From: Actinoallomurus sp.
GTDB taxonomy: Bacteria; Actinomycetota; Actinomycetes; Streptosporangiales; Streptosporangiaceae
NCBI GenBank assembly: GCA_025964685.1
Contig: JAOPYG010000009.1
Coordinates: 1-64,000, forward strand
DNA length: 64,000 nt
Direction of reading: 5' to 3'
Below, one piece after another: positions 4,692 through 6,116 of this stretch; position 1 is the stretch's first letter; each line of letters starts with the position of its first letter. The notes beneath the pieces are model-generated. The model did not search any database. It was not told where the DNA came from and saw nothing but the letters and a program-made list of their open reading frames with translations. The position numbers were made by a program, and so were the translations under genes.

Positions 4692-5072
4692 TCAGCACGT
4701 CGAGTGGAACAGACCGCCGACCGGCCGCGACGCGGCCAGTTGGTTGTAGAGCTCGACGGCCTTCCGGGTCTCCTCCACGTGGACTTCGACGTGCCGGCTC
4801 CTGAGCAGGTCGAGTGTCTCCGGGCACGTGCCCAGCCGGAGTTCCATGCCGCGGCTCAGGACGACCACGGTGGCCCCGTGGTCGAGCAGATCGGTGACGT
4901 CGGCCGGCTGGATGCCGGGATCGTGGTGGGTGCCGGTCGCCGTCCAGTCCCAGGGCCGCCCTCCGCCCGGGTACAGGGCGAAGTCGCGGCCGGACCCCAG
5001 CCCCTCGACCTCCATGCGCCCCCACGAGATGCCGAGCACGCGAGGCGACCGGCTCTCGCTTTCGGGCGTCAT
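4692..5072 (-). CDS. Mth938-like domain protein
   Basis: The 126-residue protein opens with the SWGRMEVEGLGSGRDFALYPGG pattern and has the central GATVVVLSRGMELRLGTCPETLDLLR segment, both typical of the Mth938/DUF498 fold. In that fold a variable pocket is formed by a beta-rich sheet. The biochemical role of the family is unknown. The gene lies 22 bases after the stop of the immunity-like gene upstream and may be co-transcribed with it, but no shared function is implied. Confidence 0.8.
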   Translation of the reverse strand: MTPESESRSPRVLGISWGRMEVEGLGSGRDFALYPGGGRPWDWTATGTHHDPGIQPADVTDLLDHGATVVVLSRGMELRLGTCPETLDLLRSRHVEVHVEETRKAVELYNQLAASRPVGGLFHSTC

Positions 5073-5094: not shown

Positions 5095-5520
5095 TCATGC
5101 CCGGTCGAGGCCGAGCCTGGTCAGCAACACCTCGACCGTCGGCGCCACGGTGATCCATCGGCCGTTCTGGAGCGTGAGGTAGATGACCCTGGGCTCGGCG
5201 CGCGACGGGCGGAAATCGAGGGCGAACGGCATGTCATACCCGAGATCCCCGATGAGGATCGACATCGTCGGATCGATGTCGCCGGGCGGTGACGCCTCGT
5301 CCGGCGAGCCGAGATACATCGGCAGCCGCGACTCGACGTCGGGCCAGCGGTGATTCTCGGCCTTCATGTATTCGAGCGTGTAGAAGCTTGGCTCCTGTGG
5401 CTTTTCCGTGAAGACCTGGGCCAGTTGGAGTTCGTCACCGGGCGGCGCCCAGCGCCCTTCCTCGATGGCCGAGCACAGGGCCTCGGGTAGGGGCAGACCG
5501 TTGATCTCGACGACGCTCAT
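5095..5520 (-). CDS. SMI1/KNR4-like (SUKH-type) putative immunity protein
   Basis: The 141-residue acidic protein shows features common to SMI1/KNR4-like immunity proteins: an N-terminal LPLPEAL helix, a central IGDLGYDMPFALDFR strand pair, then PRVIYLTLQNGRWITVA and a C-terminal LLTRLGL helix. Its ATG at 5520 overlaps the stop of the upstream toxin-like gene by four bases (ATGA), so the two are translationally coupled. That arrangement is typical of polymorphic toxin and immunity pairs. The immunity role is inferred from context and fold pattern. A longer in-frame extension to 5646 lies inside the upstream gene and is rejected. Confidence 0.65.
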   Translation of the reverse strand: MSVVEINGLPLPEALCSAIEEGRWAPPGDELQLAQVFTEKPQEPSFYTLEYMKAENHRWPDVESRLPMYLGSPDEASPPGDIDPTMSILIGDLGYDMPFALDFRPSRAEPRVIYLTLQNGRWITVAPTVEVLLTRLGLDRA

Positions 5521-6116
5521 ACGTCGGACCTCGCGGATCGTCCGGTCGTCCGGGCGAACGCATCCATGATCGGACCTCTCATGTGCTCGGGGACCTGAAT
5601 TCCCTCGAACGACGGGTTGTACTGGTTGACGGAACGAGAGGTCCACCTGAATCCGAAGGAGCCGTCCCCCTTCATCACCGCGACGAACCCCACGTTACTG
5701 TCACGGTCGACGCCGAGCGTCTCGGAAAGGACATGGTTCACGTCGGAATGTCCGCCATATCTTTCCACACGGTTGACCGGAACCTCTCCTGAGCGAAGCA
5801 GGGTGTCGCCGCTCGGAAAGGCCAGGAACTTTCCGGACTCGTGGTTGTACACACCCGAGAATCCTGCTCCCTCTCCGAATCGGCCGACCGTGACCGCACT
5901 GTCGGTCTTGAGATTGGACAGCGCGTCCGCCGCGTGCGCCGGCGGCAACCCGTGACGCTCCACGACGTGCGCCGCCTGCCCGGCGTGGAGTACGGGCGGA
6001 ACGGCGTGCGGCATCTCCGCGACCCGCGGGGTGTCGCGTACGGCCGCGCGCAGGAAGTCCAGGGCCGGACGGAAGAAGCCGGCCCCGAGCTGACGGCCTC
6101 CGCTAGCCATGAGCAT
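5517..6116 (-). CDS. putative polymorphic-toxin-type protein coupled to an immunity gene
   Basis: I do not recognise a named family. The 199-residue protein has an N-terminal helical, Ala/His-rich part (1-75), then a compact beta-rich domain with SGVYNHESGKFLAFPSGDTLL, RYGGHSDVNHVLSE and VGFVAVMKGDGSFGFRWTSRSVN. It ends in a basic, Ser/Arg-rich tail. There is no signal peptide or transmembrane segment, and no WXG100, LXG or PAAR delivery domain is visible, so it may be a truncated toxin tip or need another gene for export. The conserved His, Arg and Ser residues of the C-terminal half could be catalytic. Coupling to the SUKH-like gene is the main argument for a toxin. Confidence 0.55.
   Translation of the reverse strand: MLMASGGRQLGAGFFRPALDFLRAAVRDTPRVAEMPHAVPPVLHAGQAAHVVERHGLPPAHAADALSNLKTDSAVTVGRFGEGAGFSGVYNHESGKFLAFPSGDTLLRSGEVPVNRVERYGGHSDVNHVLSETLGVDRDSNVGFVAVMKGDGSFGFRWTSRSVNQYNPSFEGIQVPEHMRGPIMDAFARTTGRSARSDV

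What the first reader, a model, noticed from the sequence alone, without database searches (positions are those of the whole stretch)
5095..6116. Stand-alone toxin/immunity-like pair without a delivery domain
A 199-residue protein with an unrecognised beta-rich C-terminal domain is ATGA-coupled to a SUKH-like protein. No secretion trunk, WXG or signal sequence is present. It could be an orphan toxin cassette, an intracellular toxin-antitoxin module or a new toxin domain.
Basis: partly seen in the sequence, partly recalled or inferred. Interest (0 to 1): 0.5.

Follow-up and report, generated by a model that had tools for sequence, protein, structure and literature searches.

The report
New compact antibacterial toxin with immunity gene

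Summary
The pair is real. Toxin: complement(5517-6116). Immunity: complement(5095-5520). They overlap by ATGA, toxin first. The host genus is Actinoallomurus.

The ~130-residue C-terminal domain has no Pfam, NCBIfam, PHROGs or PADLOC match. Its AlphaFold model is confident (pLDDT 95.8), and Foldseek finds no PDB or BFVD match at E<=1e-3. Sixteen distinct examples share FSGVY...GGH...WxSxSVN. In four the domain ends a protein with a pretoxin HINT domain (three of them RHS proteins), and elsewhere it tips other trunks. All sixteen loci have a homologous SUKH-family gene directly downstream. Within the order, the nine genomes with the toxin are the nine with a strong full-length immunity match.

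'Without a delivery domain' is only partly right. Residues 3-32 match the N-terminal leader of the host's own RHS toxin, and of short toxins encoded directly after a stand-alone WXG100-like gene in related genomes. The host has such a YbaB-WXG-WXG100_2 gene set on another contig, with no toxin beside it.

Best reading: a compact polymorphic toxin, probably exported with WXG partners, acting in the cytoplasm, neutralised by its SUKH partner. Its biochemical activity is unknown. Toxicity is untested.

The parts
5517..6116 (-). Toxin gene, 199 aa from the first ATG; Met3 at 6110 is the likelier start (197 aa)
   Evidence: ORF; relatives in 15 other distinct loci
6021..6110 (-). N-terminal leader (residues 3-32), like those of WXG-coupled toxins
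   Evidence: Best match of 263 proteins is the N-terminus of the host's RHS toxin, score 59 against mean 22.8, sd 5.1; leader profile built without this toxin gives E=2.6e-5
5919..6020 (-). Variable linker (residues 33-66)
   Evidence: No conservation outside the closest relatives
5520..5918 (-). Toxin C-terminal domain (residues 67-199), new family
   Evidence: Alignments A1/A2; AF2 pLDDT 95.8, pTM 0.90; no family match
5847..5861 (-). Conserved motif FSGVY (residues 86-90)
   Evidence: F, S, G, V 16/16 and Y 15/16 in the alignment
5748..5756 (-). GGH (residues 121-123) with the only invariant histidine, H123, at the N-terminus of a helix
   Evidence: H 16/16; helix at domain residues 70-82
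5625..5645 (-). W158-x-S160-x-x-V163-N164 motif
   Evidence: W, S, V, N 16/16
5517..5520 (-). ATGA overlap coupling toxin stop and immunity start
5095..5520 (-). SUKH-1-type immunity gene, 141 aa, pI 4.4
   Evidence: PF09346; Knr4 top fold matches; present in every toxin locus
4692..5072 (-). DUF498/Mth938-domain gene, 126 aa; linked neighbour, role unknown
   Evidence: PF04430; also beside the cassette or its relic in four other genomes

Best explanation
This is a compact polymorphic toxin and its cognate immunity protein, used against competing bacteria. The toxin has three parts: a ~30-residue leader, a variable linker, and a ~130-residue toxic C-terminal domain of a new family. Inferred export: the leader is recognised by small WXG100-like helper proteins of an ESX/type VII-type route. 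In relatives these are encoded directly upstream; in this genome they would be supplied in trans from the toxin-less YbaB-WXG-WXG100_2 set on contig C284 (this step about 0.45). Inferred action: the C-terminal domain acts in the cytoplasm of the target, since its immunity protein has no signal or membrane segment. Catalysis would centre on the single invariant histidine (H123) with S87, S160, N164, Y90, R119 and R180. The domain has no invariant acidic residue, which argues against a metal-dependent nuclease or an ADP-ribosyltransferase; a metal-independent RNase is the favoured activity (about 0.4). The acidic SUKH protein, translationally coupled to the toxin, binds and blocks the domain in the producer. 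Shown by sequence: the domain family, its fusion to secreted trunks, the strict pairing, the SUKH relationship, the leader similarity. Inferred: toxicity, export, target, binding.
For: C-terminal position behind RHS repeats and/or a pretoxin HINT domain: Catellatospora L023 (RHS, FG-GAP, PT-HINT), A. meyerae L021 (PT-HINT E=3e-17), L034 (2680-aa open frame with signal-like N-terminus; RHS and HINT read by eye), L033 (RHS and HINT read by eye). Trunk swapping in Thermomonospora: adjacent genes share a 46%-identical trunk but end in different domains. Pairing: homologous immunity gene at every locus; the nine genomes of the order with the toxin are the nine with immunity matches at E<=1e-35; toxin and immunity distance matrices correlate, r=0.767, 0 of 10,000 permutations. 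SUKH. WXG operon: YbaB, WXG-like, WXG100_2, toxin, immunity in Nonomuraea and Planomonospora. Leader. Other short toxins behind the same WXG100_2-like gene carry EndoU, deaminase, nucleotidyltransferase or GNAT domains. Toxin-less set in this genome.
Against: No toxicity or binding data. No WXG gene next to the window copy. The leader profile was built from sequences I picked by eye, and three of its members are close relatives. Part of the leader similarity could be shared amphipathic composition, although shuffles and 263-396 control N-termini do not reproduce it. The toxin-domain model matches no solved structure, so the activity is a guess. In the same-genus genome G153 the toxin is gone and only half of the immunity gene remains, so the cassette is dispensable.
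Confidence: 0.8

Rival explanations
1. Silent orphan cassette: a toxin-immunity reservoir, like orphan cdiA-CT/cdiI modules. The toxin is not exported, only the immunity protein matters, or the cassette waits to recombine onto a full-length toxin gene.
For: No WXG gene or trunk beside it; lower GC than the host (toxin 65.3%, GC3 0.78, against 70.6% for the window); relic in G153; in A. soli the cassette lies about 1.4 kb from a WXG-RHS toxin operon. Orphan CDI/Rhs modules are known and functional (PMC3150448).
Against: The toxin gene has its own start and a leader, not a truncated trunk end. It has no RHS junction sequence to recombine through. Purifying selection acts on intact short toxins in relatives.
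Confidence: 0.25
2. Intracellular toxin-antitoxin module, for example in stress response or phage defence.
For: Small, adjacent, translationally coupled pair; no signal peptide.
Against: Toxin-first order; SUKH partner without a DNA-binding domain; toxin domain on RHS/HINT trunks; no PADLOC match.
Confidence: 0.08
3. Not a toxin: a housekeeping enzyme with a SUKH-domain regulator.
For: No toxicity data; unknown fold.
Against: Sporadic distribution (9 of 347 genomes of the order), C-terminal fusions to pretoxin HINT/RHS, strict immunity pairing.
Confidence: 0.04

Closest known systems
Polymorphic toxin systems with Imm-SUKH (Zhang et al. 2012, PMC3482391)
   Same: Toxin-immunity gene order, C-terminal toxin domain swapped between trunks, RHS and HINT partners, SUKH immunity, stand-alone cassettes
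   Different: This toxin domain is not among the entries of their Table 2 that I read, nor in Pfam/NCBIfam; the window copy is a short leader-carrying protein, not a trunk fragment
Orphan cdiA-CT/cdiI and orphan Rhs modules (Poole et al. 2011, PMC3150448)
   Same: Detached toxin-immunity pair away from a full-length toxin
   Different: CDI orphans usually lack translation start signals and keep the VENN junction; this one has a start, a leader and no junction motif
Type VII effectors with small WXG/Lap partners (EsaD with EsxBCD, PMC10653861; T7SS variants, PMC11217815)
   Same: Small helical partner proteins encoded beside the toxin help secretion
   Different: Here the WXG100_2-like domain is a separate ~160-aa protein and the toxin keeps only a ~30-residue leader; in the window even the partner genes are elsewhere
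SUKH-1 (SMI1/KNR4, PF09346)
   Same: Profile and fold match of the immunity protein
   Different: Window copy is below Pfam's curated cut-off; a divergent subfamily tied to this toxin in the genomes searched

Membership tests
Polymorphic toxin system | Toxin domain at the C-terminus of varied secretion or presentation trunks | tested here: met
   RHS+HINT, HINT, membrane-anchored trunk and leader-only forms
Polymorphic toxin system | Cognate immunity gene directly downstream | tested here: met
   16 of 16 distinct loci; co-occurrence in nine genomes of the order
Polymorphic toxin system | Toxicity neutralised by the immunity protein | not testable with these tools
   needs expression and rescue
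Imm-SUKH (SUKH-1) | SMI1/KNR4 fold and profile | tested here: met
   13/14 members hit PF09346, window copy 21.2 bits against cut-off 25.4; Foldseek ranks 1-8 all Knr4, TM 0.44-0.48, but E about 0.1-0.7
Known Pfam/NCBIfam toxin domain | Profile match | tested here: not met
HNH, restriction-endonuclease or ADP-ribosyltransferase toxins | Conserved catalytic acidic residue(s) | tested here: not met
   No invariant acidic column in 16 sequences; D151 (turn) D in 12/16 only
BECR-fold metal-independent RNase | Matching fold to solved members | tested here: not met
   No PDB match at E<=1e-3; a similar mechanism is not excluded
Type VII (ESX) substrate | WXG100 domain in, or WXG partner gene beside, the toxin | tested here: not met
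   None beside the window copy; met in Planomonospora/Nonomuraea relatives
WXG-coupled compact toxin (class proposed here) | N-terminal leader shared with toxins behind a stand-alone WXG100_2-like gene | tested here: met
Type II toxin-antitoxin | DNA-binding, autoregulating antitoxin | tested here: not met
   Partner is a single SUKH domain; autoregulation itself not tested

The most novel reading that the evidence does not exclude
The pair defines a toxin domain with a new fold and possibly a new activity. It belongs to an undescribed class of compact actinobacterial toxins in which the WXG100-like domain is a separate protein that exports any toxin bearing a ~30-residue leader. Leader toxins and WXG helper sets could then be mixed and matched across the chromosome, as the orphan toxin in the window and the toxin-less helper set on C284 suggest.
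Probability: 0.35. Interest if true: 0.75.

Novelty: new variant of a known kind. Interest (0 to 1): 0.52.

Why it matters
It adds a toxin domain absent from the family libraries, with a confident model that matches no solved fold, so its active site and target can be tested directly. It also turns an apparent orphan into a lead on delivery: a short portable leader shared by toxins encoded behind a stand-alone WXG100-like gene, whose tips include EndoU, deaminase, nucleotidyltransferase and GNAT domains. If that leader is a secretion tag served in trans, many 'orphan' small toxins in actinobacteria may be live weapons and easy to find.

Tried and rejected
Single-sequence scan of genome contigs found nothing; the alignment scan was needed. 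Plasmids and viral contigs hold no relative of the toxin. PDB sequence and profile searches gave only chance hits. Foldseek's best PDB matches for the toxin (polyphosphate kinase E=0.025, CheD 0.44) are not significant and have TM of 0.40 or less; I did not build a function on them. CheD/CNF-like deamidase was considered because of F-S-G-V against the LSGC motif and rejected: there is no conserved cysteine. The zinc-dependent cytidine deaminase idea (histidine at a helix N-terminus) was rejected: no HxE or CxxC. EndoU was rejected by motif order and because EndoU tips of neighbouring compact toxins score in Pfam while this one does not. A match to the middle of the C380 WXG protein was judged chance. 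L008-L010 were weak hits without the domain motifs and were dropped. Class and phylum draws added no new genome. The promoter scan was uninformative.

Full report
Observation. The two ORFs are as described: toxin complement(5517-6116), 199 aa, and partner complement(5095-5520), 141 aa, sharing ATGA. Met3 (6110) is the better start by its upstream GCGGGGA, and by resemblance to the starts of relatives (MASL, MAARGG). The toxin is poorer in GC (65.3%, GC3 0.78) than the window (70.6%) and than the neighbouring genes measured (GC3 0.88-0.95), which suggests horizontal acquisition.

Identity of the host. A same-genus genome (G177) is Actinoallomurus soli, known from the record title of the matching contig. 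The window is the start of contig C270 of a 7.6-Mb draft in 502 contigs.

Relatives and the fusion test. A single-protein search of the family found nine further genomes, six of them with convincing relatives. The alignment search of 84,980 species found 13 loci, among them four Nocardia species, Planomonospora, Nonomuraea, Thermomonospora, Actinomadura, Catellatospora and a Planctomycetia MAG. The order-wide search added two more. Counting the window and merging duplicates gives 16 distinct loci. The conserved unit is about 130 residues and always C-terminal. In Catellatospora it ends an RHS protein with PT-HINT, in A. meyerae a PT-HINT protein. In G1028 it ends a 2680-aa frame with a signal-like start, RHS repeats and HINT, and in G1041 an RHS/HINT frame; these two were read by eye, not scanned. 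In Thermomonospora the neighbouring gene shares a 46%-identical trunk but ends in a different domain; I take that tip for an ADP-ribosyltransferase by eye.

Pairing. Every one of the 16 loci has a homologous gene immediately downstream, often overlapping by 4 bases. In the order, immunity matches at E<=1e-35 occur in exactly the nine genomes that have the toxin. The tenth-ranked match, in G153 of the same genus, is a relic. Only the last 69 residues remain, directly before the same DUF498 gene (85% identical), and the toxin is gone. Toxin and immunity distances correlate (Mantel r=0.767, 0/10,000). Part of this correlation reflects common descent, so it supports co-inheritance rather than proving contact. 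dN/dS is below 0.3 for both genes in two species pairs, though dS is near saturation in the Nocardia pair.

The immunity protein. PF09346 (SUKH-1) is hit by 13 of 14 members, best E 4e-5; the window copy is under the gathering score. The AF2 model (pLDDT 92.6) returns Knr4 core structures as its top eight PDB matches. Single E-values are 0.1-0.7, but eight concordant top ranks in a library of 350,542 chains are telling. It is acidic (pI 4.2-4.8 across members) and has no evident signal or membrane segment, so the target compartment is probably the cytoplasm.

The toxin domain. It has no Pfam, NCBIfam, PHROGs or PADLOC match. The AF2 model from 14 sequences has pLDDT 95.8 and pTM 0.90, with order helix-helix-strand-strand-helix-strand-strand-helix-strand. 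Foldseek finds nothing at E<=1e-3 in PDB or BFVD. The fold is therefore unmatched in these two libraries; AlphaFold DB could not be searched. Invariant in 16 of 16: G83, F86, S87, G88, V89, G121, H123, F144, W158, S160, V163, N164, P176. In 15 of 16: Y90, R119, R180 among others. No acidic residue is invariant. SUKH proteins protect mostly against nucleases (PMC3482391), so with one histidine, two near-invariant arginines and no acid a metal-independent RNase is the leading guess, at about 0.4. It is only a guess.

Delivery. In Nonomuraea the toxin is the fourth gene of a tightly packed operon: YbaB-family protein, a 110-aa WXG-like protein, a ~160-aa WXG100_2-like protein, toxin, immunity; Planomonospora has the same order, with its WXG100_2-like gene split. 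In A. soli the pair lies about 1.4 kb from a YbaB-like, WXG, 159-aa WXG100_2-related, RHS toxin operon. The window toxin's residues 3-31 align with the first residues of the host's RHS toxin on contig C283 (MASGGRQLG-AGFFRPALDFLRAAVRDTPR / LGAGGKALGRLGVFRAAASFLRSAPRSVAR). The score of 59 is the best of 263 proteins (mean 22.8, sd 5.1).

The leader class. Searching the order with the WXG100_2-like protein found it in 38 of 196 genomes. Often the next gene, commonly overlapping the WXG gene by 8 bases, is a short toxin of 159-226 aa. Their tips are EndoU, BURPS668_1122 and XOO_2897 deaminases, a nucleotidyltransferase, GNAT, or unknown. Several, not all, begin with the same kind of leader (GVFKAAASFIRW, GLFRPIANWLKK, GLMREALKFIKK). 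A profile of ten leaders without the window toxin gives it E=2.6e-5 among 397 N-termini; the next-ranked sequences outside the training set are again mostly toxins. I chose the training leaders by eye and three of them are close relatives, so the E-value is indicative only.

In this genome the homologous YbaB-WXG-WXG100_2 set sits on contig C284 and is followed by an unrelated ORF, not by a toxin. An orphan toxin and an orphan helper set in one genome invite the hypothesis of export in trans. This is inference. Small WXG-like export partners are established for other type VII toxins (PMC10653861; PMC11217815), and a YbaB-domain protein, EspL, belongs to mycobacterial ESX-1 (PMC6319747).

Known or new. 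The kind is known: a polymorphic toxin with SUKH immunity, and detached cassettes have functional precedents (PMC3150448; PMC3482391). New are the domain family, its unmatched fold, and the leader-only, WXG-split architecture, which I did not find described in the papers I could search. Toxicity and rescue remain untested.

Noticed in passing
window 4692-5072 (-); L074:6256-6645; L019:6888-7382; L011:3680-4117; L012:4054-4431: A DUF498/Mth938-domain gene lies beside this toxin cassette, or its relic, in five genomes, though in another Actinoallomurus (L083:6881-7261) it sits beside an unrelated 876-aa gene. The link may be functional.
   Followed up: partly
L084:1916-3552 (G000 contig C284): YbaB - WXG - WXG100_2 gene set without an adjacent toxin in the window's own genome.
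   Followed up: partly
L086-L108, e.g. L093:1988-2581, L101:1988-2653, L107:992-1468: Compact toxins of 159-226 aa directly behind a stand-alone WXG100_2-like gene, several with tips that match no Pfam family; the GNAT one (L106:851-1435) would be an unusual toxin.
   Followed up: partly
L074:5838-6251: Immunity-gene relic with only the last 69 residues conserved, toxin lost.
   Followed up: yes
L017:2948-4831: Neighbouring paralogue with the same membrane-anchored trunk but a different tip that looks like an ADP-ribosyltransferase (by eye only).
   Followed up: partly
L011:5323-5685 and onward (G075 C9:12569-13056): The WXG100_2-like gene of Planomonospora is split into two frames, so that operon may be damaged there.
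   Followed up: no
L075:2452-6225 (G000 contig C283): RHS toxin of 1257 aa with leader, DUF6531 and RHS repeats; no WXG gene directly upstream; tip not identified.
   Followed up: no
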